A stretch of 64,000 nucleotides of DNA from positions 10,297,501-10,361,500 of the forward strand of contig NC_089727.1 of the NCBI RefSeq assembly GCF_035083965.1, given 5' to 3'. The stretch is from Branchiostoma lanceolatum (taxonomy: Eukaryota; Chordata; Leptocardii; Amphioxiformes; Branchiostomatidae). Under the pieces are notes generated by a model. The model did no database searches. It was not told the DNA's origin and worked only from the letters and a program-made list of their open reading frames with translations. Position 1 is the first letter of the stretch. Each line of letters starts with the position of its first letter. The position numbers were made by a program, and so were the translations under genes. Below are positions 6,212 through 58,889 of the stretch, one piece after another.

Positions 6212-7458
6212 GATGATACCCAGACAACAGTGTGTTCAACTCAACTGGCTAGAACTGATCAAAGAGGGAGAGATCATTGAAGACTTGCATGTTATTATAA
6301 CAATTCAAGGAGGTTGCATACTATGGGACTATATCATATGGGGTATGGTCTTGTCTATATAACCTCCTCGGTCTAACAGACAATAAGTAACCAGTGTTGT
6401 TGTTCAAAATAAATGTAGTTGTTGATCACTTGATGTTGATGTCGTTATTGTTGTTGACCCCAACCTAAACAGAATAGACTTAGAGCCATCGTCTCAATAC
6501 TTGTTGTTGTTGCACCATAATGTCTTTCGCCGGATCCGGATCCTAATTAGGTAATCTTAATCCACAGGGTTGATCAATGTAAACAGTGATCAGCTGATAT
6601 GTGATCCTGGACCGATCTGCCGGTGTCACATGATGTCTGAACGATATTTGTTCGGCAGACAAAATTAGACACGTGTTTCGGGTTTGGCATCTGTTCTCAT
6701 TAGTTCTCGGCTACCCATACATTTACCGAATACACATATCAACACAGAAATTGCCACATACTCACAGGAAGGATCAGAACGCCGGGCGGAAAGCAGTCTG
6801 GATCACATGGAAGGGGCGTGGAGAAACCACTTCCTGCTTACAAGGTCAAAGGTCGGGTTTACCTTCTCGATCCCAGGGTAGTCTATGATATGTACCAGGG
6901 CCATAATTTGTGGTAAACAAAAAGAGAGACAGAAAAAAGAAACAGTACAAATGGACCAGATACGATTGATGATTTACCAGAGATCTTCAATGTGCAACCC
7001 TGTGATCGCTACCTCTTCTGACCTCATCCCTATTTGGCCAAATTCTGTTATCATTTTTAAGAACGCTAGAGCTCGCTTCTCAATAACTAATACAAAATCC
7101 CAATCCCATTGGAAATCAGTCGAGGATGCAGTATTCTTATTTTCCGCCAAGTGACGCACTTGTCACGTGCGGCGAAAACAGTGTAGTAGTGGGTGGCGTT
7201 CTTTGTTCTCGTATCGCTCGAGAATAGTTTTCTGAACATTGCTTGATTTTGGATTGTAACTGGAGGACCAGCTCTCTGTTCTAAACTAACGTGGCATGAG
7301 TGAAACTGTAAACGTTCTTTCCCTTTTATTTCTCCTTTATTTTCCTTTGCAGTCCTACATTTTCTCTTCTACTTCTAGACAATGTCCTCACTCTCGGCTT
7401 CATCCGCTTCCTAAGAAACTACTGCCTATTTCAAGACTTATGAGCTAGTATCGTAATA

Positions 7459-34505: not shown

Positions 34506-36135
34506 GTTACATAGATATCTGTTATGTCACTCTGCGTGTGTGCGTTTCCCTAGTGATTATGTATATATGGTCATTTGTTTTACTTATAACTCGCCAATAC
34601 CATCGTTGTACGACTTGTATTGTGTAAAGCATGTGCACACTGCTCAAGTATATAGGCCACTTCAAGACACATTCAAATGTGTTGATATTGAATGTTTGCA
34701 TATTCCATGTTTCAATGTAAAACGTTGCGCTACTTGTCTACCTACATGTATAACAGTTGCAAGTTGGCAGAAGTGATGGGAATGCAGTAGTGTTACTGGT
34801 TATGATCGTTCGAATTTCGAAACAATGCTGTGATAGACTTTTACTTCTTGTGTTGCAATGTAATCAAGAAAGCCACAATTTAATCAATAATTCATTGTCC
34901 AGTGATCATTGTCGTCATGATTGACATTTACTGATCTGTGTGTTATTGGAATACTTAGAATCGTAACAATAATATTTTCGCCCATTCTCATAGCTTTTTA
35001 ACTACCTTGTGATTGATTCAAAACGACGTATACAGTAACAGTTTCGTGTGACTTTTGGCCAATGATAAGACATGCCGACGCAATATCCCATACATCTGCT
35101 TGAAGACGCCACCTAGCGAGATTTATGCTAATCCCAATACCCACAATGCACCTTCACCAGTTCCTGTTTTTTGCTTGACTGGTTGGTGTATCAACAGACT
35201 TGGCCTTGAGGATTTGTCTTTACTTTCGCCGTCGACTTCAAGACGTTTCGACCGACCAGGTAAGATTATGCTATAAAGAACGACGGTGCTTTAACAGCAC
35301 ATCATTTCGACCAATCTTCCTTCTCTTTCGAGATTCACCATAATAGCCGTTAGAGTGATCATGACGCACACCTTCTCAAGTGTGTACGGACTGACAACGC
35401 CCATGTCCTCAGTTCCTTGATCACGTCTTAGAGTTAGAGCAAGAGCTGGTCTCTGAAACCTACTTTGTAGATTATCCGGTTAGCAAATATACAGATGTAA
35501 CCGGCTCCTTACTGGGCGCCCAGTACGGAAACCGTGGAGAAAATAGCGCCGATACTCGGCCCCCAGTACGGAAGGAAGTTCCGTACAAGAATTCCAGTAC
35601 GGAACGGCTTTATTCCTAGTAGGATTGGTCTGGACCAATCGTAGGGAATTACGCTGGAGGAAGCGACCTCTGACCTCCGCTCGTGCCATGCTCACAACGC
35701 GAAAATCCGCCGTCTCGTACGGCCGGCTCGCCTCCCCTGCAATGTTCCGTCGGAAGCCTTTCCCCTCTCGAGCTTTCATGAAGCATTTCAACCTACCGTG
35801 CGGCGCTCCCCAACTCCCGAGGCACACGAATCTGCCAAGAAACGCGCGGGTTGCCGTCCTCGTTGGGCCCGACGCCGACTCAGACAGCAGGGCCGCGGTG
35901 TGCACTACAGCAGCGTGTATGGGCCGCCAGTAACGTTGCCCACCTGGATTCGCAGTTCTAAGCGAGAGGCTCCTCCCGACCCTGAGTCTCTACACTGTTC
36001 GTAATCTTTGGCGACGTCCTGCAGCGAGTTTTCTTCACCAGCCTGGGACTGCACACCTGTTCCTGCCTGCCCATAACGTCCACAGAGACAGTGAGTCCAC
36101 AGCGACCGGAACGATAGCCCCCCCCCCCCCCCTCG

Positions 36136-37798: not shown

Positions 37799-39753
37799 AA
37801 CGCAGGGCCGCGGTGTGCAACCACAGTAGCGTGCGGGGACTCCCACTAACGTTGTCCACCTGGATTCGCAGTTCTAAGCTAGAGTTTCACCCGAAGACTG
37901 ATTCCGGCTGTCTCTACACTGTTCGTAATCTGTGGCGGCGTTCTGCAGCGAGTTTTTCTCCACCAGCCTGGGACTGCACACCTGCCTGCCCCGTGTGAGT
38001 TTCCCCGACATATACATTCTGAGCCTTCATCAAGCCTCTCAACCTACCGTGCGATGTTTCCCAACTGCCGAGGCACACGAACCTGCCAAGAAACCTGCGG
38101 GTTGCCGCCCCACAATTGCGTATTTACAGAGAGTACACAACGATCGGACCGACAGCCCCCCTCCCTCACTCACCTCCCGCCCTTGAGGCGGGGTCTCGCG
38201 AGACTCCGGCCCGTGATTTGAGCAGCCATGTTTCTTCTCGCGAACCTAACAACTTATCCACGAGCTTCCACGAGCGGTACTTCCTCATTGCACGCCCTTC
38301 TCCCTTTCCACCCGTACCTACACGGTCTACAAGAATGCGGTGTGCATCAACAGCAGCGTACTCAAGGCTCCCCACTCCACGTCGATGCGACTTAACCTTC
38401 CGGTCCGACTCGGAGTCCGCGGCAGCGTCCTGCAGCGAGACCGTCATCAGCCTGGATTACCACGCACACTCGAAACTCTTGACTCTTTCCAGTAGAGTAG
38501 AGTAGATTAGAGTAGTTTAGCACAGCCAGATTGACAGTTCATCAAGATCAGCTCCAGCTGCGTGCCGAAGACCCCCAGTACCCGCCCACGGCCCACTTCA
38601 CAGTACTAAGTGAGAGACTCACGCCGACGTACCCTTTCCGGTTTGTCTCTACGCTGTTCGACAGTGCCCGGCCGGTGACGTCCTGCGGCGCGTTCTTCAC
38701 CAGCCTTGGACACTTTTTTATGAACTTGAATATCCAGCTACCTCCTAATTTAGATTCAGCACTACCACTACAACTAACTACTTTTCCGCTACGCGGTTTG
38801 GGGCCCTCACTACCCTCGGCTTGGCCGTTGATGTCTCTGTACAACCATTATAAGCCTCTACCACAGAGCAGTTTCACAGATTAAAGACATCACATGCCCC
38901 AAACCGCCTAGCTTTCTCCTTGTATTGTCTATGTGTACGTAAGTGTAATTCTAGTAGGATTGGTCTGGACCAATCGTAGGGAATTACGCTGGAGGAAGCG
39001 ACCTCTGACCTCCGCTCGTGCCATGCTCACAACGCGAAAATCCGCCGTCTCGTACGGCCGGCTCGCCTCCCCTGCAATGTTACCACCATCCCGCCCTTGC
39101 TGCAATCTCAACTTGCATCTTAAGAACTCATAAAATTGTTTAAACTTACCAACACTGTACGTAATACATTACAGTTTGTGTTGTGACCGCCAAGACCACA
39201 GTCTTTGGCCGTTGATGTCTCTGTACAACCATTATAAGCCTCTACCACAGAGCAGTTTCACAGATTAAAGACATCACATGCCCCAAACCGCCTAGCTTTC
39301 TCCTTGTATTGTCTATGTGTACGTAAGTGTAATTCAGTACCGAAGCTTCGTCAGCACTGGACGTCCAGAACTGAATTTGTTTCGGCACTCGGGTTCCAGA
39401 GCTGAACGCCTCTCGGTATTCGGGTTCCAGTACGGATTTGCGTTCCGGCTAGGTCAACGGTCATTCGGTACTGGTTACCCAGTGCGGAGGTCATTCAGCA
39501 CTGGATAACCGAGTGCCGATTTACGGATGTAACGGGTTCCGTACTGGATTTACCAGTAAATAGTGAAACTTCAGTACTGGAAGCCGAGACCTCAAATTAT
39601 TTCGGAACTGGGCGTCCTGTACTCACGTTCTATACGGTACTGGGATGATCCATTGTTTGGACCGACTGGACAGTTTTGGATTTAGTTGTCTGTACATTTC
39701 AATGCTTGTACATACTAACGTTTAGGTAGTACTGCTTTGTGCCTTGGTTATGG

Positions 39754-39780
39754 CAAGGAGGTTTGATATAAAACCTCCTT
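39754..39780. mobile_element. 27-bp fold-back micro-insertion with 8-bp duplication
   Basis: CAAGGAGGTTT, GATAT, AAAACCTCCTT sits between two exact GGTTATGG octamers (39746-39753, 39781-39788). It is little more than two inverted ends. The same ends occur at 52899-52917. Confidence 0.75.
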
Positions 39781-40336
39781 GGTTATGGACATAGATTTTG
39801 GTAGGTATTTAAATATAAAGTACATTATTATTTCAGTGTATGTTTTCTCCCGATAAAGGCACAAGCCACAAGGATATGTTGTTGTCGTTGAAACGTAACA
39901 GAATGTGATACTGTATTTTTTCTTTCTTCATTCGAACGTCTTCCAAACAATAGCTTTGAAGTGGGAAAAAGCATTGAAGAGATGAAGCCCTGAAAATAAC
40001 GTTAGACGGTCGTTAGAGTCTCAGCACTTGGTTTCCAGTCCTGACAGGAGGGTTCCCAGTACTGAAGCTGCCCAGTACAGGAAGTCCAGTACTGAGAAAG
40101 TCTCAGTACTGGAGCTCCTGTTCTGACGACCACTTCCGTACTGGTTGTCCAGTACTGACAAAGGAGGCAGTTACATTTGTATATTTGCATCCGGTTACTA
40201 ATTATTGCTTTGCTGCTGCAGTTGTTGTTGTCTTTGTTTCCTCTGTTGCTTTCATTTTTCACAGACGTTGTCTCTTGGTGCTGCATGCTGGGTTTTATAA
40301 GTTATGCCCCATTAGAAGATAACATGTATCAAAAAG

Positions 40337-40454
40337 CCCATTCGCGGTTGCGACTACGCATGTGCAGTGTCAAAGGTAAAGGCCCCTGAAACGTAAACAA
40401 GCCAGGGGCCTTCACCCTTGACACTGCACATGCATAATCGGAACCGCGAATGGG
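40337..40454. repeat. 118-bp long-armed hairpin upstream of gene B
   Basis: About 50-bp arms beginning CCCATTCGCGGTT and AGGCCCCTG are inverted around a short loop (AAACGTAAACAAG) with a few mismatches. Similar sequence TATGCCCCAYTARAAGATA lies on both sides (about 40303 and 40462), which may be a long target duplication. Confidence 0.75.
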
Positions 40455-41047
40455 TTTATTTATGCCCCACTAAAAGATATCTATTGACATATGCATGTTT
40501 TCCTGTTCTGCTTGCCAAGGAACCACTCAACCTCCCGAGCCATTGCACTGATTTTTTTGGTTGGATGTTTACTGTTTCAAACTTTCGAATTGGTGTGTGC
40601 ACTGTCCTAAGCCTAAAGCCTGTTCAGGACCTAAACCATATGACTTTGCTCCCAACCTCTACTCCCCAACCAAGGTCGGCACTGAGTTGGGAGAAGCCTG
40701 GACTCTATTCTATTCTATCTCCGGTTCGACGTTCACTCCTCTGATCACATCAATTGGACCAAACAGTATATGGTTTTCCCGACTTTGATCATTCAAAAAT
40801 TATACGCACCTGCCGACTTTCAAAGACTAGTAGGCAACTGACCAATTGCAACTCCATATCACAGATGACCTTGCTCACCACCAACTCCCAACCATGGTGT
40901 GGAGAAGGCCGGGAGGCCATTATGGTTTAATTCTAAAGGCTATGTGTGACAAGGATAAGTTAAGGTACCATAATTAGTATTGCTGACTATATAACTGTAT
41001 GAATGTAAACGTAAACCTACATTGTGATATTTCCTTCCTATCCAGCC

Positions 41048-42971
41048 ATGTGCTGTAGTGAGGGAGGCTGTTGTGGAGGCAGCTGTAAGTACAAGGGGAC
41101 CTGCATCCGCAACCTGGGCTGGACCCTGATAGTTCTGGGAGTTGTCGGCTTCATCCTGGCAGTGATTGCAGATGGGGTGTACGCAGGATACCCGTTTGCT
41201 ATTGTGCATCACATCAGCACTCCAATATGGGGAGGAGTCTTTGTAAGTCTGACTGTCTTTTCTTTGCTGCTTACAAGTGACTGGAACTACATACAGTATG
41301 CAATGTCACATATGCCAACATATGCAACTTCGCATATGCCTAGCTACTTATGTGACATTGCATATGCCTACATGTACACTTGCATATTTGTTATTGCCTC
41401 AACTCAAACTACCTTTCGTACTGAAATCGTATTTGTTATACAGCAGATGCCACTGTATTTGCTAAAGTTGCTCTGCAACGATTGTAGATATTTGCAATGT
41501 TACTAAGTAGCTAAACTGTTACTAATGATTTTATGATATAACATTTGTTTTACAGATCATAATTGCTGGAGGCTTGGCTGTATGTGGAGGAAACAACCCT
41601 GATAATGCCTGTCAGGTGAGGTCTTCCATACTCTCAGTGTGCAGTAACATTTTTGATTGGTGTCAAGATGTAACACAGAAAATGCCTGTAATTCATGTAC
41701 AGATTCCTAGAAGATTTAGAGTGCTTAATCTATATACAGTAGCTATAACTGTACTTTTACTGTAAACGTGTCAGCAGAGTTTTACAATAACAGACACACA
41801 CTTATTAACTCTATACTGGTTGTTTCATATTCCCCTGTAACTTACAGTGTAAAGCTAGTTTGTCTTGATTTAGATATATCCAGCAATAGCAGATTTACCT
41901 GTATGATTCATACCCTTGTAATGTTTTTGTCAAATATCTAAGTCTAAGGGCCTATGTTCTGTTCTGTAAACAAAAAAGTAATGTACTTAACGGTTATATG
42001 TATGTTACATGTGAAATGTTATATGTAAAAACTAAAATGTTACATGTAAAATGTAATGAAAATTTGAATTCAAGAAACTTCAGTCTAACACCTTCTTTCT
42101 CCTCCGCTTTCACCTTACAGAGGATAGCACTTCTGATCATGAGCATCTTTGGCATCATATTCGCCATGACAATTTGGATCATGGCATCTGTTGGACTAGC
42201 CAATGATGGAAACCAATGTGAATGGTTTAAGCTGGGACCATGTGACAAGAATGATCCTCATAATTATTATAATTATAACTGTGGCTGGTGGTATGACTAC
42301 TGGTAAGTATGAGTACATGATATTACTTACCCTGCCCTGATTATTGCCATGTCATAATTATTAAAAAAATATTATGAAGTTACTAGTTATAGTTTATGGG
42401 GAAGATTGAAGACTTTCTATCTAGGTGTAGTATGCTATCCGACATATCATGATCACAAGGAGCTAGGAGTTTGTAATGATGCATTGGCAGCTTAAATGTG
42501 GTGTTCATGGCTTAACAGTTCGTGATGACATGTTTTAAAGCCTTGTAAACTTGGTCAATGGCAAATGTCAGAAACCATATTGTCCTTGCAGAATTATTAA
42601 GGATGTTTTTGATGTGATAATCAAGCATTTTTATTCAGGATATGTTAAAGACTTGACTGCTTGGTTATGTAACAATAGTAGTTTCCTGTCATCTATCATC
42701 AAAACTTGTACAAATGCAAACTGGGCTTGTTACCCTTGAGCTCCAATTCTCCTTTTAAATGATACATGTTCTTGATGCTGTAAGGATTCTGTTTTGTAGG
42801 TACGATCTGTATCCCAACTGGCGGGATATTGACTGTGGGGGAATAAAGGCCCTCCATGCCCTCCAGCTGGTCCTGGGGCTGACAGAGACAGTGGTGATGT
42901 TCATCGTGAGCATCAGGGCCTGCTGTGGAACCTGCTGTCACTCCACACAACAGCCTCCGGTAGGTGTGGAG

Positions 42972-43018
<47 letters not shown>

Positions 43019-44068
43019 GCATGTGTAAGTGTATTGTAGTGTAGTGTAGTGTGTGTGTTTGAGTGTGAGTGCATGTGTGCTTGTGTGTGTGTGTGCGTGC
43101 TTGTGTGTGTATGTATGTGAGTGAGTGTGAACTTTCAAGCTTTGTGGCAAAACATTTTTGGGGATGCAAACGGTCGGCATACATGATAAAGCTGATTCTT
43201 TGCAGCCCTTCCATATATATTACCCATAATGTAAAAAGCTTGTGATGTTCTGTCAACCTTGTTCTTGTACTTTTCAGACTCATGCCATCATCTACCAGCC
43301 TGGACAGCCCTTACAGCAACAGATGCACTCTGGGGTCATCATCATGCAGACAGGTGAGAATACCATACTTACAAGGAATAATACCACTCTCACAAGACTC
43401 GAGTGGAAGACGACCCTATGTTTTTTTGCTGCCTGTGATTGGCAGCAGTAAGAGAAGCCATGCAAATTTCAATGCCATGCCCACCCTAACAGTGGCCCAT
43501 ACTAAAACAAATTGAATGTTTGTAGCTGTGCATTTTATGATTTCAGTGTGATTTGGCAGGTTTAGTATCATTTAGTATCATGCTGTAGTATCATTTAGTC
43601 GATCTTCATCTGTTGTCAAAAATGATCCTGTGATTTATTCTTATACTTCTGTAATGTTTGCATGTTTATTATACATTATGCATGGGTGATACACCTGTAC
43701 ATCATTTCCCTTTTTTGTCTCCTGTAGTGCCTGGGGCTCCACCTGGCCAGCCCTATGCAGGACAGCAGCTAGTCTACAACCCACAAGCACAACCTGGGGT
43801 GTACCCAGGTCAACCCCAGCCTGGGGCGTACCCAGCTCAACCCCAGCCTGGGGCGTACCCAGCTCAACCCCAACCTGGGGCATATCCAGGTCAACCCCTG
43901 CCCGGGGCAAACCCAGGTCAACCCCAGCCTGTGGCATACCCAGCTCAATCCCAGCCTGGGGTGTACCCTGGATCCCAGCCTAGTCCATACCCCACACAGG
44001 CTGGGTCATACCCCACCCAGATGGCAGCCCCACCAGCTTACAATGTGGTCACTGATCAGAAGGCGTAA
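41048..44068 (+). CDS. Gene B: MS4A-like four-pass protein with repeat tail
   Basis: Exons: 41048-41242 (acceptor just before 41046), 41556-41615, 42121-42302, 42800-42959, 43278-43353, 43728-44068; 338 codons with stop (337 aa). It starts with a Cys-rich [17 protein letters not shown] segment that could be palmitoylated. TM1 is about 22-45, TM2 59-79 ([14 protein letters not shown]), TM3 87-110, TM4 about 163-187. The TM3-TM4 loop is long, with Cys residues, GPC, CGWW and YPNWRDIDC. The C-terminal tail (about 225-337) carries YPxQPQPGx nonapeptides and ends [16 protein letters not shown] is a potential WW/NEDD4 ligand. The function is unknown; MS4A relatives are plasma-membrane signalling proteins. 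Start choice: the ATG follows the CCAG acceptor by two bases in B, C and D alike. Confidence 0.82.
42973..43130. repeat. (GT)n-rich tract after the exon 4 donor of gene B
   Basis: It starts 14 bp after the GTAGGTGTGGAGACT donor segment. The same tract follows the same donor in genes C and D. Confidence 0.9.
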
Positions 44069-44354
44069 ATGACAGATTTCTTGCTGGTTTTCATATGCTT
44101 GCTGGGTTTAGCTTTGAATTCAATGCCATTTTATGTATGAGCTAAGAATGCAAATTTGTAGCAAGATCTAGTATGTGAAAAACCGGCAATAATGTTTCTT
44201 TACCCGTTTGGGAAAGTATGTTTTCCTGATAAACTATTGACCCACACATGACCACAGAGCATGTCGTCAAACATAAATGACATAACATCTAAAACAAGCA
44301 TAGCTTGAGCCAATATTTCTCTGTAAAGTTTTAAGCCATAGACTATGTAAATGA

Positions 44355-44655
44355 AAAGACTAAAAAAACAGATATATGATAGTTTTGGCGAGCCTAGGAG
44401 TAACGTTATGAGAAATGCTTTAAGTGCAAACCACAGATGGTCATCAACAGTTGCGATGATTTTTCATGAAAACAGAGATGTTGTTTTCAGTTTGTTTGTT
44501 TTGGTATGTGTGCTAGTCTGTTCCCACTGGCCAGGGTCCAAGGCGGCAGGATGTGAAGCAGAAAATGGTCTAAATGGAGACTTGCAGGATGGGAAGGCTG
44601 GTTTGGCCCAGGTCCACAATTTGTGAATCTGGCTTGTTGCAGTTGACTTTCTTCC
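44355..44655 (+). repeat. Dispersed repeat inserted in gene B 3' flank
   Basis: It matches 11605-11815 (minus) and 50570-50812. The gene D 3' flank runs straight through the insertion point near 57371 without it. Confidence 0.75.
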
Positions 44656-46146
44656 ATTAAGAAGGGTTGACACTGAAATGCATGACTTGAGTGCAAACCT
44701 GCTTTCTTGATTGTTAACAATATCAGTATTATTAAGCAGATTTATCCAACTCAATTTATGCCTGAAATTATCCAAATTATACATAGGGGATGTACTGTAC
44801 TTCAAATGTGAAAATGTGCTTTTTTGCACTTGAGGCTCTTCCCTTCAAAAGCTGTGTGAGGATCATTGAAACAAGTGTCATTGAAAATGATACCTATTCA
44901 TGCTTCATAATGAGTTGAATACATAGAATGAAGATTATGATCATTATAGAAGCTGAGATATGCCTTGTGCAAATCAGTCATTGCAAAGGAACTAACAATC
45001 ATTCCAACATACATGAACATAATATGTTCCCAAGTTGAGTAGGTGAGGCAAGAAATGATGTGACAATGAAGAAGTAACAAATGCTGATGTAACAGTTATA
45101 TAATATTTACATAAGATTAATTACCAACATGATTTAAAGAAAGATGAGAGTAATTGGAAAGATTTATTTTATCAAGTTACATCCAAAGGTGAATTGCCTG
45201 AGTATTAATCCATGTATCAACATGTGTCTTAACAGTGAATGTTGATAGGTTTGAAAGCCATTCTATTAATTCCATGGTTGATACATATTGTGCTGATACA
45301 TTTAAGGTTTTCAGCGTAAGCATACGGTTCATCCATAAATGCGAAGTTCAGTTGTTGTTTTTTTGCAATGCATGTTTGTAAGCTCATTGCTTATTGTGAA
45401 GGGCCAATAGTGGTAGATATGGTAGCAATAACAGAGGTGACGAAATGCTGTAACTCAACTACCGCATATTCTACTCCTGTATATATATTGTCAGGATTAT
45501 TATAATGGCATTCATGGATTTTGATTATGGCTCCTCCAGAATAATTGTATTAAACATATTTAAACTGATGGCAAGACTGAAATCATTTTTATCATATTTT
45601 TCATCATTCATTCACCTATTAGATTAAGAGACGTATGATCATGAACGACTAAATTACACACTCGTATCATGATTACGGGGCAGTGGGAAGTCAAATGCCT
45701 TGGAAAGGGCATTTAGTTCTGCACCCAGCCAGCCCACTGTTCATTTGTAGGTAACGTTACCTATCCCATCCCTTAGAATTATATTTGATACTGTAATTTG
45801 ATTACTTTCCACTTTCCCATAACGTTAGTTTAGACAAGGATTAACAACCCCACTCACTAGTTGCTGTGTCAACTATTTACTAGTATGATTGTTGAAGAGT
45901 TATGAACAACCTCAAATTATGTCTGACAACCTGAAGGGTTCAAACTGAACGATGACAATTTGTAAGACTTAAATTTCATCGCCCGACGTCGCTCTCTGAC
46001 TGATCAAGATGTAAACAACCACAGCACAAAACCCGAGGGCTCAAGTTTCAGTTCGGATACCCTGAACTCATCCACTATGGGTCACCTCAGCACAACAATA
46101 CTGACGGAAAACTCCAACCTTTGACACCTGTTCGACCTGGCTCGTC

Positions 46147-46233
46147 ATTGGCAGCCATATGCAGGATCATATATACTGAACAAACACCCTGGTCAGGTAA
46201 ACGCCTCTCAGTTCGTGTCGTCATCTGTTACAG
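46147..46233 (+). promoter_or_regulatory. Gene C core promoter and 5'-UTR exon
   Basis: An inverted CCAAT (ATTGG, 46147-46151) and TATATA (46170-46175) precede AAACGCCTCTCAGTTCGTGT and a donor at 46233/46234 (ACAG then GTAGGT). This block is conserved before gene D at 52098-52188 and, decayed, at about 58890-58985. Conservation across copies supports a non-coding first exon spliced to the acceptor at 47285. The start of transcription is inferred, near 46198. Confidence 0.65.
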
Positions 46234-47287
46234 GTAGGTCATGCCATTACTATTTCGTAAGCTATGAAATTAGGTTTATTTGCTGTATGCAGCGAAGTTA
46301 TGCTGGATAGAAGAATGTTTTAACCATGTGATTTTAACTATAACGTTACATGCTTAAGGAAATGGTTCGTGTCACAGGTAGTCTGAATGAGGAAGTTTTA
46401 AACAGGTGTGGCAGGCTAGGTGCGCCAGAAATGGCCACCATTATACAAATTATTCTTTGTTGTTGTCTTTGTTTCGTCTATTATTTCGCTAGACGTTTTC
46501 TCTTGGTGCTGTGTTTCACTATACCCCACTAATTTGAAAATGTTGTATGATACAGGCCGATCCGGGCTATCAACAGGTTGTTCCAGTTCCGCTTGCCAAG
46601 CGACTTCTCTACACCCTAAGCCAACATTTACAACGATTCTTTGATTGGATGTTTACTGATTGAAAGGTATTTCTGTGCTTCCTGTCAATAATTAAAATTA
46701 AGGCTATCTGTGCACTATCAACAGGGTGGGCAGCTTTTTAGTAGTATGGTAGTATTTGATGTCATTTAGCAGCAGATTATGAGAATTTCAATTTGAGCTC
46801 AAACCTGGACCCTCGAAACCCTTTTGTTCTTTTTTCCCCATGCACTACCACGGACCCATGATGCGAAAGAATTGGTGTGTGCACTGCTCTAGCCTAAAGC
46901 CTGTTCAGGACCTTCTATGACTCTGCTCCTTACCCTACCATGACCAGGGTCGGCACTCAGGTTGGGAGTACCCTGGACTCCGAGTATTCTAACTCCGGTT
47001 CGCCCCTCTGATCGCATCCAATCAGACTTTCCCGAGTTTTGAGCGTTCAAAAGTTATTATTGGCTGGTGCAAATGACATTTAAAGTAAGCAACCTCACCA
47101 ACCAACTCCCAACTATTGTTGTCTTTGATCACGACTAACCATAGACGGCCGGGAGGCTATTATCATGGTTTAAAGGTCATGTGTGACAGGGTCTTATAAA
47201 TTACTCGTACTCGGTATTACTAATTAACTGGATGATTGTACAATCTACAGTCAAACGTACATTTTGACATTTCCTTCCTGTCCAGCC

Positions 47288-49319
47288 ATGTGTTGTGGCG
47301 CGGGAGGCTGTTGTGAGTACAAGGGGACCTGCATCCGCAACCTGGGCTGGACCCTGATAGTTCTGGGAGTTGTCGGCGTCATCCTGGCAGTGATTGCAGA
47401 TGGGGTGTACGCAGGATACCCGTTTGCCACCCTGCATCACGTCAGCACTCCGATATGGGGAGGGGTCTTTGTAAGTCTGACTACTTTTCTCTGCTGCTTA
47501 AGATGACTGTAACTACATAGTTATGCAATGTCACATTTGCCAACATATGCGACTTCTCTTACGCCTACTTCTGTGACATGCGTATGCCTACATGTACATT
47601 TGTTATTGCCTCAACACAAGCTCAAGTCAAATTACCTTTCGTACTGAAATCGAGTTACAGCAGATGCCACTGTATTGTCTTAAAGTTGCTCTGCAGCAGT
47701 TGTAAATACTGTTACTAATGATTTTATGATGTGACATTTGGTTTCCAGATTATAATTCCTGGAGGCTTGGCTGTCTGTGGAGGAAAGAACCCTGATAATG
47801 CCTGTCGGGTGAGATTTTCCATACTCCAGGGCATTATCATATTATAGGTGTTGACGTTAGGATGTGACACAGAAATCGCCTGTTGTGTAATTCAGTTACA
47901 GATTCCCAGAACATCTAGAGTGATTTTTTATATAAAGTACATGTAACTGCAATTCTACTGTAAAATGTCAGCAGACTGGGGAATGTGAAACAACTACTAT
48001 GTGTGTCTGTAATCAAACTCTGGCAGAGTTTAACAATTACAGACACACATGGTAGTTGTTTCACATCCCCCTGTAACTTATAGTGTAAAGCTAGTTTGTC
48101 TTGATTTAGATTTAGATATATCCAGCAATAGCAGATTTACCTGCATGATCCATACTCTTGTAATTTTTGTTGAAAAATGTTCAAGTCTTAGGGCTGATAT
48201 TCTGTTCTGTAAAAGAAGCAATGTACTTAGTATGATTAAGTAAAATGTAATGAAAATTTCAAGTCAAGAAACTTCTAATATTTTTTCTTGTCTCACTCCC
48301 ACCTGAAAGAGGATAGCACTTCTGGTAATGAGCATCTTTGGCATCATGTTTGCCATGATAATTTGGATCATGGCATCTCTTGGACTAGCCATTGACGGAA
48401 GCGAGTGTGACCGGTTTAAGCTGGGACCATGTGACAGGAATGATCATTATGATTATGGCTGTAGTTGGTGGGATGATTACTGGTAAGTAACGTTATGCGT
48501 ACATGATATTACTTACCCATATACTCAATTTAACTGCACTGTGCACTTGTTTTAAAAGTAAATTTGATATTGCTTACCATGCCCTGCTCATTACCATGCC
48601 ATATTGCAAAAATATGTTTGAACTTAATAGTAACTAGTGGATTATGGGACAGATTGAAGACTATCTGTCTAAGTGTTTAAATTCTACCCGATATATGCCA
48701 TGGAGCTAGAAAAGATACATTAGCAGCTCAAATGTGGTGTTGATTGTTCAACAGTTAGTGACGACATGTTAAGCCTAGCCAACTTGGTAAATGGAAATGC
48801 CAATACCCCCCAAATGGGTGTTTTTTTATTTGACAATAAAACATTTTTATTCAGGGTATGTTGAAAACTTGACCATTGCTGTTCGGTAATGTAACAGTAG
48901 CAGCTTCCTATCATCTATTATCAAAACATGTATAGATGTCTGCACACTGCGGCTGCATAGCTACAGGATGGATGGATGGATGGATGGATGGATGGATGGA
49001 TGGATGGATGAATGGATGGATGGGTGGATGGATGAATGGATGGATGGATGGATGAATGGATGGATGGGTGGGTGGGTGGGTGGGTGGATTCCTTCTTTTA
49101 TACGACTCATGTTGTTGACCGTACTATTCATTATTCTGATCTGCAGGTATCGTCTGTATCCCAACTGGCGGGATATTGACTGTGGGGGGATAAAGGCCCT
49201 CCATGCCCTCCAGCTAGTCCTGGGGCTGACAGAGACAGTGGTGATGTTCATCGTGAGCATCAGGGCCTGCTGTGGAACCTGCTGTCACTCCACACAACAG
49301 CCTCCGGTAGGTGTGGAGA

Positions 49320-49368
<49 letters not shown>

Positions 49369-50310
49369 TGTGTGCGTGTGTGTGTGTGTGTGCATGTGTG
49401 TGTGTGTGAAAACGGTCGGCTGATAAAGTATATATTTCTCATAAAGGAATAAGCTTGTGATCTTCTGTAAACATTGTTCTTGTACTGTTCAGACTCATGC
49501 CATCATCTACCAGCCTGGACAGCCCTTACAGCAACAGATGCACTCTGGGGGCTTCATCATGCAGACAGGTAAGAAATCCATACTTACAAGGAATAATACC
49601 ACTCTCACACGACACAAAACTCGAGTGGAAATACGATGCAAATTTCAATGTCATGGCCACCCTGACAGTGACCCGTACAAAAAAAAGATCGTTTGTAGCT
49701 GTGTATATCATGGTGATTTCAGTGTGATTTGGCAGATTTTAACATAATTGTACAATCTGATCAATCTTCATCTGTTGTCAAGCATCCTTATTTTGGTTCA
49801 AAAGTAAAATTACACGGTTATGCCTGATGAGCACAGAATGCCTTTGAACTCTTCATCGTCAACACATACATTCCTCCTTTTATTTTCATATTTTTGTGTA
49901 TCATACATTGTGCATGGGTGATACATGTAAATCATTTCCCTTTTTTGTCTCCTGTAGTGCCTGGGGCTCCACCTGGACAGCCCTATTCCGGACAGCAGCT
50001 GGTCTACAACCCCCAAGCACAACCTGGGGTGTACCCAGCTCAGCCCCAACCTGGGGTGTACCCAGCCCAACCCCAACCTGGGGTGTACCCAGCTCAACCC
50101 CAGCCTGGGGCGTACCCAGCTCAACCCCAGCCTGGGACGTACCCTGCTCAACCCCAGCCTGGGGCATATCCTGGATCCCAGCCTAGTCCATACCCCACAC
50201 AGGCTGGGTCGTACCCCACACAGGCTGGGTCGTACCCCGCTCAGATGGCACCCCCATCCACTGAGTCACAGCCACCACCTTATGATGTGGCTACTGATCA
50301 GAAGATTTAG
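47288..50310 (+). CDS. Gene C: MS4A-like four-pass protein with repeat tail
   Basis: Exons: 47288-47470, 47749-47808, 48310-48482, 49147-49306, 49493-49568, 49958-50310; 335 codons with stop (334 aa). The layout is as in gene B: Cys-rich start [15 protein letters not shown]2 [14 protein letters not shown] with a Pro where B and D have Ala, and a loop with [11 protein letters not shown] and CSWW. The tail has YPAQPQPGx repeats and a duplicated YPTQAGS before [12 protein letters not shown] (PPPY at 323-326). The exon 3 acceptor is a weak CCTGAAAG where B and D have a pyrimidine-rich stretch and ACAG; splicing may be less efficient. Exons 1 and 4 are nearly identical to those of B. Confidence 0.82.
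47978..48070. repeat. 93-bp palindrome in gene C intron 2
   Basis: GGGGAATGTGAAACAACTAC with TATGTGTGTCTGTAAT faces its inverse at 48036-48070, around an inner AACTCTGGCAGAGTT hairpin. Gene B has only one half of this at the same place, so the palindrome arose in C by a local inverted duplication. Confidence 0.75.
48966..49087. repeat. (GATG)n array in gene C intron 3
   Basis: About 30 units of GGAT/GGTG-type tetranucleotides. The open frame read through it is a repeat artefact. Confidence 0.95.
49320..49408. repeat. (CT)n(GT)n tract after the exon 4 donor of gene C
   Basis: It occupies the same position as the GT tracts of B and D, with a CT block added at its left side. Confidence 0.9.
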
Positions 50311-50569
50311 ATGACAGATTCATTGCTGGTTTTCATATGCTTACTGAGTTTAGCTTTAAATTCAATGACATTTCATGTATTAGTTAAGTGTACTGGACCA
50401 TTGTGTAAACTTGTAACAAGATCTATGTGAAAAACCGGCAATGATGTTTCTCTACCCTTTGGGAAAGTAAACATGTTTTCCTGATAAACTATGGAACGGA
50501 GCATGTTGTCAGACATGAATGACATGAAATCTAAAACAAGCATAGCTTCAGCAAGTATTTCTTGGTAAA

Positions 50570-50812
50570 TGAAAAGGGTTGGTATATGACAGTTTGATGG
50601 TCATCAACAGTTATTATGATTTTTCATGAAAACAGATATGTTGTTTTTCGTTGGTTTGTTTTCGTGTTTGTGCTAGTTTGTTACTACTGGCCAGGGTCCA
50701 ATGTGTCAGGATGTGAGGCGGTAAATTGTCTGACTGGAGACTTGCAGGACGCAAAGGCTGGCCTGGCCCAGTTTCAAAGTCGGTGCTTTTTGCAGTTGAT
50801 TTTCTTCCATTA
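50570..50812 (+). repeat. Dispersed repeat in gene C 3' flank
   Basis: It lies at the same paralogous position as 44355-44655, so it was inserted before B and C separated or was copied between them. Confidence 0.75.
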
Positions 50813-52097
50813 AGAGGTATTGACACTGAAATTCATGACTTGAGTGGAAACCTGCTTCCTGGATTAGGACTGCTAACAATAACAGTATTACTATGCAGAT
50901 TTATCCAACTAATTCATGCCTGATATGATACAAACTATGCATAGGGGATATTCTCCAAATATTAAAATGTGCCCCTTTTGGCGCTTGAGGCTATTAAAAA
51001 AAAGTGTAATGAGTATGGAAAGAAATGTCATTCAAAATGATACCTATTCATGCTTCATAATGAGTTGAATACATAAAATAAATGTTATGATTATAGAAGC
51101 TGAAATATGCCTTGTCCAAAACAGTCATTGCGAAGGAACCAACAATCATTCCAACATACATGAACATAATATGTTATGTACATCCAAGCTGAGGCGAAAA
51201 AATCATGTGACAATGAAGGTGAAATAACAAATGCTGATGTAACAGTTATATAACATTTAAAGAAAAATATGAGCAATGATTAAAAGAAAGATTAGAATGA
51301 TTGATTAGAAAAGATTTTATACTATCAGTTTACATCAAAAGGTGGTGAATTGCCGAAGCATTTATTCCATGCATCAACATGTGTTTTAATAGTGAATTGT
51401 GGTAGACTTGAAACCATTTTATCAATTCCGTGGTTGATAGATATCTTACTATTGTGTTGATACATTAACGGTTTTTGTTGAATTATATCCATAAAGATGT
51501 AGTTTAATTTTGTTGCAATGCTTGTTTGTAAGCTTATTGTGAAGTGCCAAAAGTAGTACACATTGCAGATATGGCAACAGCCACAGAGTTGATTGAATAA
51601 AGTAACTGGTGTCCTGCATAGTCTACTCTTGTTTATGATGCCAGGAGTATTCTTATGATTGGAGACTTCGTGGATTTAGACGGTGGCTCTTCCAGGAACT
51701 TTGTAATAAACATACATACACTCATCAGAGAACAAGACTGAAGTCGTATTTTTCAACATTCATTAATCTATCAGAGACATGTATGATCATGAAAGACATG
51801 CATGATCATGAGTGACAAGATTACACACTCGTAGCATGATTATGGGTCACTGGAAAAAAACATTTACAGGCCCTGCAGTCAGCCACTGTTCATCTGTACG
51901 CACCTGTCCCAGCCCTTGAGATATTGTTCTTATCGTCCGAAGTCGCTCCCTGTTGAAGATGTAAAAAACACAGCACAAGGGCCGAGGGCTCGAGTTTCTG
52001 TTGTAGGTCGGATTCGGCGATGAGTGTCAGCACAACAACACTGACGGAAACACTCTAACCTTTGACACACCTGTTCGACTAGTCCTGACAAGGCTCG

Positions 52098-52188
52098 TCA
52101 TTGGTTGTCATACGCAGGATCATGTATAATGAACTAGCACCCTAAGGTCATGTAAACGCCTCTTAGTTTGTGTCGTCTTCTGTTACAG
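52098..52188 (+). promoter_or_regulatory. Gene D core promoter and 5'-UTR exon
   Basis: An inverted CCAAT (ATTGG), TATAAT at 52125-52130, then TAAACGCCTCTTAGTTTGTG and a donor at 52188/52189 (ACAG then GTAGGT). It is parallel to the gene C promoter. Confidence 0.65.
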
Positions 52189-52898
52189 GTAGGTCATGCT
52201 ATTATTGTTCCGTAGGCTATGAAATTAGGTTTATTTCGAGTATACAACTGACTTTTGCTGGTTAGAAGAATGTTTTAACTTAGTAACCACTAATGGTTCG
52301 TTTGCATGTAACCAGATGTATCCCTTGGTGTTATTTTTCTCACATATCTGATCTGACTTTCCTTCCTTCTGTTTTGGCTTCGTCGACCTTTTTCCACCGT
52401 CACAGGTTGTAGGTGTTTATGGTTGCTTGAAACTGGATAATTTCAACGTTCAGCGATGTCAGTAAGCTTAAGGTTTGAACGGCAGACTAGAATTCCTGAA
52501 ATATCAGGACACCGCAGTGTAATGTCACTATACACTAGCGCACCCCAGATCTTTTGTTGAAATCATTCCGGCGATCGGTGTGTCGCGTCTTATCCAGACA
52601 GTGGAACTTCATTAAGCTTTTCTTTTACGCTCTGTGGTATCGTTCGATGTATAGAAGAAAGACATTTGTCATAACCTTGACTTTGTAGTTCTCGGGACTT
52701 CAGTAACTAGTAACTATGAGGATGTTGTGCAGTAGGTTTTATTGCTATCATACCACAGAGAAACACTTCTTTCGTCTATCATTAAATGAGTTGGTCTGAG
52801 AGTCAGAGTGACACTGCACAGCAATCACAACAGAACATTATTTCGACTGACCTCCCTTCTCTTTCGAGATTCTGTAAGTATCACACATAAGGTCAGAG

Positions 52899-52917
52899 CA
52901 AGGAGGTTAACCTCCTT
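52899..52917. mobile_element. 19-bp fold-back micro-insertion with 8-bp duplication
   Basis: CAAGGAGGTTAACCTCCTT lies between exact GGTCAGAG octamers (52891-52898, 52918-52925). The paralogous sequence upstream of B (about 35352-35362, CGTTAGAGTGATCATG) has a single uninterrupted copy of the target. Confidence 0.75.
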
Positions 52918-53489
52918 GGTCAGAGTGATCATGACTCACACCTTCCCAAGTGTGTAACACGGACTGACAACGCCCATGTTTTCAGTCCCGTGAACACGTC
53001 TTAGACCAGAAACCAGAGCTGGTCTCTAAAACCTACTTTCTAGATAATCAGATTGATAGCTAATCATGTGTTGTAGTTTTCGTCTCTATTTCGTCTATTA
53101 GATATTTAGCTAGTCGGACGTTTTCTCTTGGTGCTATGCACCACCAAAACAAGATAATGTGATACAGGTCCACCAAGGCCATTGACAGGTTGTTCCTGTT
53201 TTCCGCCTGTTCCAATTGCCAAGCGATTACTAGATAAGACTATGAATTTCCCGAATTTTGATTGTTCAAACATTATTGTTGGCAGATGTTTTTTTAAAGA
53301 CTACTAGGCAATCTCACCGACCAGCTCCCAAGCATGGTTGATTTTGATCATGATTAACCATAGACGGTCGGGAGGCCATTATCGTGACATGTGTGACAAG
53401 GGCTTAGAGGTACCACAATCACTGATTAAATGTATGATTATACAATCTACAGTCAAAGGTACATTGTGATATTTCCTTCCTGTCCAGCC

Positions 53490-55806
53490 ATGTGTTGTGG
53501 CGCGGGAGGCAGCTGTAAGTACAAGGGGACCTGCATCCGCAACCTGGGCTGGACCCTGATTGTTCTGGGTGTTGTCGGCTTCATCCTGGCAGTGATTGCA
53601 GATGGGGTGTATGCAGGATACCCGTTTGCTGTCGTGCATCACATCAGCGCTCCTATATGGGGAGGAGTCTTTGTAAGTCTGGCTGCCTTTTCTTCACTAA
53701 AAAGTGACTGGGACTACATGTACAGTCAAACCTGTACAAGTGACCATCTGTACATGAAGACCGCCTGGACAATGCGACCAGTTTTTAATGGTCCCTTAGA
53801 ACTTGTTTCATATCACAGAGGGATACGCCTCATATACAACGTTATATATGCCTGCATGTACAATTGCATATTTGTTGTTGCCTCAACACAATCCCAAACT
53901 ACATTTCACTCCTGACCAGTCATTTTCTAAATCTTCACAATTGTTCTTAAGATTCTATTGATTACAGCAAATTACAGCAGATGTCTTTCCCTCAAGTTGC
54001 TCTGCAACAGTTGACAACAATCTGATATAATTCCATGTGACATTCTTTCCAGATCATAATTGCTGGAGGCTTGGCTGTATGTGGAGGAAACAACCCTGAT
54101 AATGCCTGTCAGGTGAGGTCTTCCACATTCAACTGAACTCTCATTCGGGGCATTGTCAGAGTATAGGTGGTGTGCAGTATCATTGAAAAAGGCCTGTTGT
54201 GCAGATTCCCAGAGTTCTTTTTTTTATACCCCTTACCCACTTACAGTGCACGACTCGACATTTATTTTGGGATGTAGGTGCACTGGTGCAACTATTAGAC
54301 ATGAAGATGTATGTGCACAGAATTTATTTTAGGTGCACAACATAAGATAAAGTAGAATGTCAGGAAAATAAATTTACAAGCCCTACTGCCTCTCTTAAGA
54401 ACTTCAATCTGAAATTCTATAGCTAATTTCAAAATTTTAAACAAGTACAACAAATGTTATATTACTTTTTCTGCTATTTAGATATCAAGAATATTCTATA
54501 AACTAGTGTACAATATTACCTCTACCCTATAACCTTAAAAATATCTAGGTGCACTGGTGCGTGCACCCACGTGCACAGTCAAAAATTAGGTTCACAGCTT
54601 TCTGTTCTGTAGAAAAATCAATAAACTAAGTAGTATGTTATATGTAGAATATGATGAAAAGTCAAGAAACTTCTAACATGTTTTTCTTCCCACCCCCACC
54701 CCTTCTCCATACAGAGAATAGCACTTCTGATAATGAGCATCTTCGGCATCATAGCTGCCTTTGTGATTTGGATCATGGCGTCCGTAGGACTATCCGTTGA
54801 TGGTAGTCAGTGTGACTTCTTTAAGAAGGGACCATGTGACAGAAGTTATCAATATGGATATGGTCTATATGACAACTGTGGTTGGTGGTCTGATTACTGG
54901 TAAGTAGTTGTGCTTGTTTTAAAGTACATATTACATTGCTTACCTTGCCCTTGTTCTTGCCATGTCATAAAGATATATACAGTCAAACCTGGTCAGGCAA
55001 CCACCTCTATTCACAAGCCACGGTAAAACTATTCACAAGCCACGGTAAAACTATTCACAAGCCACGGTAAAACTATTCACAAGCCACGGTAAAACAGTCC
55101 CGTCAATTTTCACATAGAACAGGTGACCCTATAAATCGGGAATGACACTCTAATTCCGGAAAACCTTAAGAATATTTTTTTCAAGACATTATCTGATACC
55201 ATTATGTTCTGATGATGTTACATCGTGATACAAAATACCAATAACTCAAATAGAAACATTCTTTATTCATTATAATATACAGTTTACCAAAATTCTGTCT
55301 GAGGTTTCCAGAATTCTCAAGAATTCTAGCTCAGGTCCCAGAATTCTGGCAGAAATCTAAATTCAGAAACATCATGATGTTTTTTATTTTATTTGATTTG
55401 ATTTGATAATCAAAGTTTTGTATTCAGGATTTGACCGTTGCTGTTTAGTTATGTAACAATAGTTTTCTTCATTGCCATCTATCATCAAAACATGTTGAGA
55501 TGTTTGTGCAAAGATGTTTTCACATGAAAGATTTTTGCACACTGGGGTCATTGTACTTGAGGTCCATTCCTCCTTTTAAATGATTCATGTTGTTGACCGT
55601 ACTATTTCTTATTCTGTTTGCAGGTACGATATGTATCCCAACTGGCGGGATATTGACTGTGGGGGGATAAAGGCCCTCCATGCCCTCCAGCTGCTCCTGG
55701 GGCTGACAGAGACAGTGGTGATGTTCATCGTGAGCATCAGAACCTGCTGTGGAACCTGCAGGAACTGCTGTGACTCCACACAACAGCCACCGGTAGGTGT
55801 GGAGAC

Positions 55807-55858
<52 letters not shown>

Positions 55859-57086
55859 TGTGAGTGTGCGTATGTGTGTGTATATGTGAGTATGTTTGTG
55901 TGTGTGTATATGTGTATGTATGTGTGTCTCTGTGTGTATATATATATATATGTATGTGAGTGGGTGTATGTGTGGCCGTGTTTGTGTGTTTATGTGTATG
56001 TTAGTGTGTTCGTGAGTGTATTTGTGTGTTTGTATATGTGTATGTGCATGTGCATTCATGTTGACAAAGGTTTGACCCTTAGTTACCCTTTTTCGATTGT
56101 GATACACTGACTGTTTGATGACAATTTTCACAGAACTCACGTGTACGAGGAAGTATGGCACATACTAGTAGCTTTGTGGTAAAACAGATAGCACTCAAAA
56201 AGTTTACTCAAGCTCCATACAGCCGCTATCCCTTCTGTATATATTGCCCATAGTTTGAAAAGCAGAGAAGACAAAAGCAAAGTATGATTTTGAATTTATC
56301 TAAATCCACAGCTAACTTAACATTTCAGCTAGCTATTCTTGCTGTAACGCTTGTGATGTTCTCTCAATCTAAAAATGTTCTTGTACTTCAGACTCATGCC
56401 ATCATCTACCAGCCTGGACAGCCCTTACAGCAACAGATGCACTCTGGGGTCATCATCATGCAGACAGGTGAGAATACCATACTTATAATACTATAAGACT
56501 TTATATTTTCTACAGTCACAAATATGTCAGCTTTTCCTTTGCCATCCGTGGTTGGCAGCAGTGAGAGACCACATGTGAATTTCAATGTAATGGCCATCGG
56601 TCCATATTAGTCTATAAACTAATCAGTTAAGATCAGCTGGTTAAGATAATCACAGAATGCAGTGCAAGTCTATAACTTCAAGACATACATGTTCCTCATT
56701 GCTTTTCATGCCTCTGTGATGTTTTCCTGTGTAGTATTTATAGCACATGTATAATACATGAGCTCTCTTTGTCTCCTGTAGCGCCTGGGGCTCCACCTGG
56801 CCTGACCTATCCAGGACAGCAGCTAGCCTACAACCCCCAAGCACAACCTGGGGTATACCCAGCTCAGCCCCAGCCTGGGGCGTACCCAGCTCAGCCCCAA
56901 CCTGGGGGATACCCAGCCCAACCCCAACCTGGGGCATACCCAGCTCAACCCCAGCCTGGGGCATACCCTGGGCCCCAGCCTAGTCCATACCACACACAGG
57001 CTGTGTCGTACCCCACCCAGATGGCACCCCCAGCCACTGTGTCAGAGCCACCACCTTATGATGTGGCTACTGATCAGAAGATATAA
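53490..57086 (+). CDS. Gene D: MS4A-like four-pass protein with repeat tail
   Basis: Exons: 53490-53672, 54053-54112, 54715-54899, 55624-55792, 56392-56467, 56782-57086; 326 codons with stop (325 aa). The topology is as in B and C. The loop is Tyr-rich ([15 protein letters not shown]), and exon 4 has three extra codons ([10 protein letters not shown] against CCGTCCH). The tail has five [13 protein letters not shown] units and ends [12 protein letters not shown] (PPPY at 314-317). Intron 1 contains a pogo-type MITE end (53723). Intron 2 carries GTGCACTGGTGC-rich repeat sequence (54240-54600). Intron 3 carries a 22-bp tandem array. The other family members set the start and splice sites. Confidence 0.82.
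55006..55094. repeat. 22-bp tandem repeat, four copies, gene D intron 3
   Basis: The unit ACTATTCACAAGCCACGGTA plus AA repeats four times. It follows a CAGTCAAACCTGG pogo-type end at 54979, so it probably expanded from that element. Confidence 0.85.
55806..56050. repeat. (GT)n-rich tract after the exon 4 donor of gene D
   Basis: The longest of the three tracts, with GTAT and TATA interruptions. The reverse-strand open frame of His/Thr runs here is a repeat artefact. Confidence 0.9.
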
Positions 57087-58298: not shown

Positions 58299-58415
58299 TA
58301 GAGCCGCGGCGACTCGGGTGGGAAGACGTATTTTGCTTGTATATTCATATAGTGTCTGACAGTATATGAATATACAAGCAAAATACGTCTTCCCACCGGC
58401 GAGTCTCCACGGCTA
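58299..58415. mobile_element. 117-bp MITE with 9-bp duplication
   Basis: Ends TAGAGCCGCGG and, read back, TAGCCGTGG lead into long inverted arms GTGGGAAGACGTATTTTGCT. Exact TGAAATCAA direct repeats flank it (58290-58298, 58416-58424). The TAG start and 9-bp duplication are the same as in the 5810-5903 element, though the sequences differ. Confidence 0.88.
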
Positions 58416-58889
58416 TGAAATCAAGAGACATGTTTGGTCATGAGCTGACAAAATAACACACTCGTATCATGATCACGGGCAGTGGGAAGTCAAATGCCTT
58501 GGAAAAATCATGTAGTTCTACAGTCAGCCACTGTTCATTTGTACGTACCTTTCCCCATAATTACTTTCCCACTGTCACTTAGCGTTATGTTCTACATGGA
58601 TGAACACCCCTATTGGTAGTCGTGTTGACTATTTATAGTTGTTGCAGAGAGATATCTGACAGCCTCAAGAATTGACACTGAACAACGACAATTTGTAAGA
58701 CTTCAATTTTCATCGTCCAAAGTCGCTCCATGACTCCATATGTAAACACCCACAGGACAAAAGCTGAGGGCTCGAGTTTCAGTTCGGATGCCCTGTAGGT
58801 CGTATTTAGCGATTAGTTATCTCAGCACAACAACATTGGTGGAAACACTCTAACCTTTGACCCACCTGTTCGACGACTCCTGACAAGGC

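What the first reader, a model, noticed from the sequence alone, without database searches (positions are those of the whole stretch)
39746..52925. Micro fold-back insertions: 19- and 27-bp elements with 8-bp duplications
CAAGGAGGTT...AACCTCCTT units of 19 bp (52899) and 27 bp (39754) each sit between perfect octamer repeats (GGTCAGAG, GGTTATGG). The paralogous B site lacks the first. These look like transposons reduced to their two ends, or products of a transposase acting on tip-only DNA. Elements so short are below usual detection limits and could be widespread.
Basis: seen in the sequence. Interest (0 to 1): 0.72.

Follow-up and report, generated by a model that had tools for sequence, protein, structure and literature searches.

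The report
Tiny transposon-end palindromes with target duplications
Two 20- and 28-base palindromes in an animal-like sequence carry the marks of a jumping-gene insertion, but they are so short that they are more likely scars of a larger element that left than mobile elements themselves.

Summary
The window holds two CAAGGAGGTT...AACCTCCTT palindromes (39754, 52899), each between perfect 8-bp direct repeats. A generic scan for this structure finds only these two, and none in 500 shuffles. Exact copies of the palindrome in 15 unrelated prokaryotic or viral loci never have flanking repeats over 2 bp. If the element ends in its symmetric G, it is 20 or 28 bp and the duplication 7 bp (GTCAGAG, GTTATGG). 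A probable third member (65 bp, no target duplication) lies at 6306-6370; with the 28-mer it suggests ends CAAGGAGGTTNNATA.

These are best read as tips of an inverted-repeat DNA transposon that inserted with target duplication. The hAT label is not supported: both targets break the hAT consensus nTnnnnAn. A P-superfamily origin is possible (7-bp duplications are known for Drosophila 1360; P transposase cuts 17 bp inside its ends) but the target motif fit is near chance. I favour excision or end-joining footprints over mobilised micro-elements. No host genome, transposase or parent element could be searched, so superfamily and mechanism are inferred.

The parts
39746..39753 (.). left target-site duplication GGTTATGG (7-bp reading: GTTATGG 39747-39753; part of a 12-bp repeat starting at 39742)
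   Evidence: sequence; scan
39754..39781 (.). 28-bp micro-element CAAGGAGGTTTGATATAAAACCTCCTTG (27 bp if the last G is counted in the duplication); within the first 16 bp the two arms differ only at position 12; centre ATAT
39781..39788 (.). right target-site duplication GGTTATGG (GTTATGG 39782-39788 in the 7-bp reading)
52891..52898 (.). left target-site duplication GGTCAGAG (GTCAGAG 52892-52898)
52899..52918 (.). 20-bp micro-element CAAGGAGGTTAACCTCCTTG, perfect palindrome (19 bp if the last G is counted in the duplication)
52918..52925 (.). right target-site duplication GGTCAGAG (GTCAGAG 52919-52925)
6306..6370 (.). probable older, longer member, 65 bp: CAAGGAGGTTGCATA ... TATATAACCTCCTCG (right end has one mismatch), no detectable target duplication
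   Evidence: expected number of such end pairs about 2e-4, computed after the pair was seen
35349..35355 (+). single-copy GTTAGAG in the other window copy of the dispersed repeat that holds the 52899 element; no element there
   Evidence: inconclusive

Best explanation
The two micro-elements are what is left after a larger inverted-repeat DNA transposon, with ends beginning CAAGGAGGTT (probably CAAGGAGGTTNNATA), inserted with a 7-bp duplication (8 bp if the element is asymmetric) and was then lost. A transposase that cuts the second strand well inside the inverted repeat, as P transposase does (17 bp inside), leaves both tips as 3' tails on the donor chromosome. End joining of the two near-identical tails fuses 10 to 14 nt of each tip between intact target duplications, perhaps helped by self-complementary tetramers at the centre (TTAA in the 20-mer, ATAT in the 28-mer). 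Shown: shared tips, direct repeats, rarity by chance. Inferred: a longer parent, P-like cleavage, end joining.
For: The only two such structures in 64 kb carry the same 10-bp tip; 0 of 500 shuffles. 15 of 15 control palindromes have flanking repeats of 2 bp or less, against 7-8 bp for 2 of 2 in the window. A 65-bp probable relative shares CAAGGAGGTTNNATA with the 28-mer, which points to longer elements of the same family. The two arms of the 28-mer differ at position 12 (TG versus TT), as expected from two ends of a parent rather than copying one arm (or from later mutation). P transposase cuts 17 bp inside its inverted repeat (passages of PMC7776569); donor ends keep 17-nt 3' tails, in which the microhomologies used in repair often lie (passages of PMC2895639). 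Tips of 10 and 14 nt fit inside a 17-nt stagger. The P-superfamily element 1360 makes 7-bp duplications (table passages of PMC3276498).
Against: Only two clear cases. No longer element with intact ends and duplication was found in the window, and no transposase among the 15 of 34 ORFs of 120 aa or more that were searched in Pfam. Target motifs fit P-superfamily motifs hardly better than chance: 5 of 7 against KTNBWAB for both (chance mean 4.10), 4 of 7 against GTTNAAC (2.58), and 1 and 4 of 8 against GTCCGGAC (1.84). The P literature seen is not all favourable: in wild-type flies most recovered products after P{wa} excision come from partial repair synthesis plus end joining, and direct joining at the tails was scored in Rad51-deficient flies (about 17% of chromosomes); P excision in cells gave small flanking deletions and zebrafish THAP9 larger ones, which would damage the duplications. 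The 65-bp relative has no target duplication and is too long for a simple stagger footprint. The 20-mer is too short to show NNATA. A palindromic centre is automatic in a perfect palindrome, so TTAA is weak evidence for microhomology.
Confidence: 0.43

Rival explanations
1. Mobile or trans-assembled micro-elements: two transposon tips, cut loose or fused, are themselves inserted by transposase acting on tip-only DNA, so that the 20- and 28-mers are a very small non-autonomous family.
For: Intact duplications and undamaged 10-bp tips; different centres would follow from joining loose tips after insertion. I have an untested recollection that such palindromes are common in amphioxus DNA, a possible but unproven host.
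Against: Ends 20 bp apart can hardly be synapsed in cis (general knowledge, not tested). The two copies do not share one centre, as copies of one mobile unit would. No copy number is available.
Confidence: 0.25
2. Extreme internal-deletion derivatives: after excision the gap was partly copied back from a sister and then end-joined, leaving 10-14 bp of each end (ordinary deletion-derivative formation taken to the limit), without any special stagger.
For: Passages of PMC2895639 describe incomplete repair synthesis followed by end joining as the main outcome after P{wa} excision in wild-type flies; the 65-bp relative fits a less complete deletion.
Against: Random deletion endpoints should rarely fall within 10-14 bp of both ends in two of two clear cases (inference).
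Confidence: 0.25
3. Not a transposon: chance, local template switching, a hairpin motif, or tandem duplication.
For: The 12-bp rather than 8-bp repeat at 39742 is an oddity; the empty-site test is inconclusive; palindromes of this sequence do occur in prokaryotic and viral DNA, and a similar CAAGGAGGGAGACCTCCTTG stretch lies in a sugar-beet satellite (passage of PMC2820488).
Against: 0 of 500 shuffles; the same foreign tip at unrelated sites; 15 of 15 control palindromes lack flanking repeats over 2 bp.
Confidence: 0.06

Closest known systems
P-element excision products (Drosophila P superfamily)
   Same: Would combine kept target duplications with short tips of both inverted repeats; cleavage 17 bp inside the repeat is stated for P and 17-nt tails on donor ends.
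   Different: No P-like transposase or full-length parent seen here; the end CAAGGAGGTT differs from zebrafish Pdre2 CATACCTGTCAAC, and Pdre2 and P have 8-bp duplications; flanking deletions reported after excision are not seen here.
1360 element of Drosophila (P superfamily)
   Same: 7-bp duplication, motif beginning GT or KT.
   Different: Targets here match the published motifs only slightly better than chance; end sequence not compared.
hAT elements (hobo, Hermes)
   Same: Long duplications of about 8 bp; ends beginning CA (recalled).
   Different: Target consensus nTnnnnAn broken at both sites in both registers; symmetric duplication 7 bp.
MITEs
   Same: Inverted repeats with target duplications, no coding capacity.
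   Different: 20-28 bp is almost nothing but the two tips; typical MITEs are tens to hundreds of bp (recalled); copy number unknown.

Membership tests
TIR DNA transposon insertion (class II, any superfamily) | terminal inverted repeats directly flanked by a target-site duplication | tested here: met
   2 of 2 micro-elements, 0 of 500 shuffles; control palindromes 0 of 15. The probable third member has no duplication.
TIR DNA transposon insertion (class II, any superfamily) | empty site with one copy of the target | tested here: inconclusive
   The repeat copy at 35349 has one GTTAGAG and no element. Removing element plus one duplication raises the alignment score from 100.0 to 108.0, but the 15 best of all 27-bp removals start at 52874-52888 and score 108.5-110.5.
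hAT | 8-bp duplication fitting nTnnnnAn | tested here: not met
   GGTTATGG fails positions 2 and 7, GGTCAGAG fails position 2; GTTATGGA and GTCAGAGT fail position 7 (consensus, compared). It is a consensus and there are two sites.
hAT | hAT transposase on a full-length element with these ends | not testable with these tools
   no host genome held
P superfamily (P, 1360) | 7- or 8-bp duplication in the P or 1360 target motif | tested here: inconclusive
   Length fits 1360 (7 bp) or P (8 bp); motif matches 5 of 7 (KTNBWAB), 4 of 7 (GTTNAAC), 1 and 4 of 8 (GTCCGGAC), chance means 4.10, 2.58, 1.84 (motifs, count)
P superfamily (P, 1360) | P/THAP9-type transposase on a parent element | not testable with these tools
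   no host genome held; none among the 15 of 34 window ORFs searched in Pfam
MITE family | many dispersed copies with the same internal sequence | not testable with these tools
   only the 64-kb window is available; 2 clear and 1 probable copy, with different centres

The most novel reading that the evidence does not exclude
The 20- and 28-mers belong to a large genome-wide class of tip-only insertions, made by a transposase that inserts loose or fused ends in trans, so that transposition can spread sequences far shorter than any recognised element.
Probability: 0.17. Interest if true: 0.72.

Novelty: new member of a known kind. Interest (0 to 1): 0.4.

Why it matters
If footprints of this kind can be read from one genome, they record where transposons once sat and how the breaks were repaired, and they hint at the cutting geometry of a transposase without an active copy. 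If they prove to be mobile in their own right, they would be the smallest class II insertions that I know of (recall), below the length limits of usual repeat annotation.

Tried and rejected
Host genome search: none is held. Looking for the palindrome elsewhere: 3 viral loci and 12 prokaryotic loci, taken as chance or hairpins and used as controls; L001 and L003 show the same stretch, so there are 14 distinct contexts among 15. A longer element of any ends with 7-9 bp direct repeats and near-perfect 14-bp inverted ends, up to 2 kb: only the two micro-elements and an unrelated 96-bp one; larger or more diverged elements were not sought. Target duplication for the 6306 element, 6-9 bp, up to 2 mismatches, shifts up to 3: none. 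Direct-repeat settings of 5 bp with 8-bp arms and 6 bp with 7-bp arms, in exact register: nothing in the window. Tandem-unit paralogues as empty sites: no usable alignment at either element. A weak 59-bp, 69% match of 39708-39766 to 4602-4659 (minus strand) covers the left side of the first element; it shows neither the element's tip nor a usable target and I did not count it. Gaps in alignments between paralogues: 4 insertions with direct repeats of 5-7 bp printed, none with the ends of this family. Repeat copy at 35 kb as empty site: inconclusive. tRNA and Rfam scans of the window: nothing. Relatives of the reverse transcriptase in viral contigs: 10 pattern matches, none confirmed. Plasmid search with 52780-53110: no match.

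Literature: ten searches listed no paper that I could recognise as describing these ends. Most were seen as listings only, and several lists were cut (10 of 37,800; 15 of 1,220; 12 of 26). None of the 15 papers listed holds either 10-mer. The 6 papers that hold both 10-mers have titles unrelated to transposons (listing only). Two papers that hold CAAGGAGG were opened at the passages: a sugar-beet satellite unit and a microRNA table, neither of this family by what is shown. Passages only were read of PMC7776569, PMC10983969, PMC5802833, PMC3706591, PMC2895639, PMC2803484 and PMC3276498. An amphioxus MITE paper that I recall (doi 10.7150/ijbs.2.61) is not held, so it is unread.
Full report
What is there. 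At 39746-39788 the window reads GGTTATGG CAAGGAGGTTTGATATAAAACCTCCTT GGTTATGG, and at 52891-52925 GGTCAGAG CAAGGAGGTTAACCTCCTT GGTCAGAG. These are the only two AAGGAGG(N0-20)CCTCCTT pairs in 64,000 bases. CAAGGAGG occurs 7 times against 1.59 expected, but 4 of the 7 belong to these two elements and a fifth to the probable third member; the other 2 are isolated.

Register. In both cases the first base of the right octamer also completes the palindrome (CAAGG...CCTTG). With symmetric ends the elements are 28 and 20 bp and the duplications 7 bp, GTTATGG and GTCAGAG, each preceded on the left by one further G. Two sites cannot decide between an asymmetric element with an 8-bp duplication and a symmetric one with a 7-bp duplication and a preferred G in front. 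At the first site the left flank also repeats CCTT, making a 12-bp direct repeat; I have no explanation beyond coincidence.

Chance. A generic scan (exact 7-bp direct repeat immediately around a 14-40 bp element with perfect 8-bp arms, low-complexity words left out) returns these two and nothing else; 500 dinucleotide-preserving shuffles return none. With arms of 6 bp, 9 of 500 shuffles have one hit and none has two. An earlier scan with 7-bp arms and one base of slack gave one hit in 1 of 25 shuffles. As a second control I took the exact CAAGGAGGTT(N)AACCTCCTTG matches in viral contigs (3 loci, N up to 30) and in the prokaryote genome collection (12 loci, N up to 12). In 15 of 15 the flanking direct repeat is 0-2 bp; two of the viral loci show the same stretch. 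So the palindrome as such does not bring flanking repeats with it; the window copies do.

A third copy and the end consensus. At 6306-6370 an exact CAAGGAGGTT faces a one-mismatch copy of its complement that starts 55 bp further on; the expected number of such pairs within 80 bp is about 0.0002 from base composition, an estimate made after the pair was seen. No target duplication is recognisable there. Next to the 10-bp tip, both ends of this element and both arms of the 28-mer read NNATA; the exact string CAAGGAGGTTNNATA has 3 matches in the window and none in 100 shuffles. The right end of the 6306 element is not among the 3 because of its mismatch, the two arms of the 28-mer share their central ATAT and so are not independent, and the 20-mer is too short to show NNATA. 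The arms of the 28-mer differ at position 12, which argues that it joins two ends of a parent and is not a copied-back hairpin, unless the difference is a later mutation.

Empty site. The 52899 element lies in a dispersed repeat with one other detected copy in the window, 35293-35476, 83-86% alike over two aligned blocks. That copy has a single GTTAGAG at the corresponding place and no CAAGGAGG. The test is inconclusive: joining the flanks raises the alignment score from 100.0 to 108.0, but the 15 best of all 27-bp removals, starting at 52874-52888, score 108.5-110.5, because the sequence just left of the element has diverged.

Mechanism. The data imply that the same tips entered two unrelated sites with duplication of 7-8 bp of target. 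How a 20-28 bp element came about is inference. P transposase cuts the second strand 17 bp inside the inverted repeat (PMC7776569, passages), and donor ends keep 17-nt 3' tails in which the microhomologies used for joining often lie (PMC2895639, passages). Direct joining of such tails could leave this kind of scar: duplications intact, up to 17 nt of each tip, fused. hAT and Tc1/mariner excision leave fewer or no tip bases (recalled). Against this, the same paper says that in wild-type flies most products recovered come from partial repair synthesis followed by end joining, and it scored joining at the tails in Rad51-deficient flies (about 17% of chromosomes); and another reports small flanking deletions after P excision and larger ones with zebrafish THAP9 (PMC10983969, passages), which would damage duplications.

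Superfamily. The 1360 element of the P superfamily has a 7-bp duplication with motif GTTNAAC (earlier KTNBWAB), P has 8 bp and GTCCGGAC, hobo 8 bp and GTNCGNAC (PMC3276498, table passages). GTTATGG and GTCAGAG match KTNBWAB at 5 of 7 positions (chance mean 4.10) and GTTNAAC at 4 of 7 (2.58); the 8-mers GGTTATGG and GGTCAGAG match GTCCGGAC at 1 and 4 of 8 (1.84). The hAT consensus nTnnnnAn (PMC2803484, passage) is broken at both sites in both registers. Zebrafish Pdre2 has different ends, CATACCTGTCAAC, and an 8-bp duplication. A P-like origin is thus possible, not shown; hAT is less likely, not excluded.

Rivals. Mobilised or trans-assembled tips would be far more surprising; they are disfavoured because ends 20 bp apart can hardly be synapsed together (general knowledge) and because the two copies do not share a centre, but only a genome-wide table can settle it. 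Incomplete gap repair giving extreme internal deletions is close to the favoured model and differs in predicting a smooth length distribution. Chance or template switching is disfavoured.

Context and limits. The window looks animal: a reverse transcriptase ORF (Pfam RVT_1, E 1.5e-7; its Penelope-like label is recalled) and a tandem array of similar sequence from about 41 to 60 kb. I suspect amphioxus from memory of its repeats; this was not tested. Only 15 of the 34 ORFs of 120 aa or more were searched in Pfam, and the reverse transcriptase was the one match. No whole genome is held, so copy number, polymorphism and the parent element are out of reach. Ten paper searches listed nothing that I could recognise as describing CAAGGAGG-ended elements; that is a statement about those searches, several of them cut lists, only.

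Verdict. A real, well-defined pair of micro-insertions with transposon hallmarks; most likely ordinary in kind (footprints or remnants), unusual in cleanness and size. Interest 0.4.

Noticed in passing
window 5809-5904: A separate 96-bp element with inverted ends TTAGCCTGGGTGCCATCCTA and flanking direct repeats AGTCAAC (7 bp) or AAGTCAACT (9 bp), depending on register; looks like an intact MITE.
   Followed up: partly
window 40328-40463 and 40056-40144: Two fold-back stretches near the first micro-element, self-complementary at 81% and 77%; neither came up in the scan for inverted ends with 7-9 bp direct repeats.
   Followed up: no
window 14318-16182 (-): Reverse transcriptase ORF (RVT_1) and an overlapping ORF with a GIY-YIG-like stretch (motif recalled, no Pfam hit), resembling a Penelope-like element.
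   Followed up: partly
window 40900-60200: Tandem array with unit spacing of about 6.0-6.9 kb and a 27-nt (9-residue, [13 protein letters not shown]) repeat that differs between units; the ORFs look membrane-protein-like by eye, with no Pfam match for the two tested.
   Followed up: no
window 39742-39753: The left flank of the first micro-element repeats the element's own CCTT end, giving a 12-bp direct repeat; unexplained.
   Followed up: no
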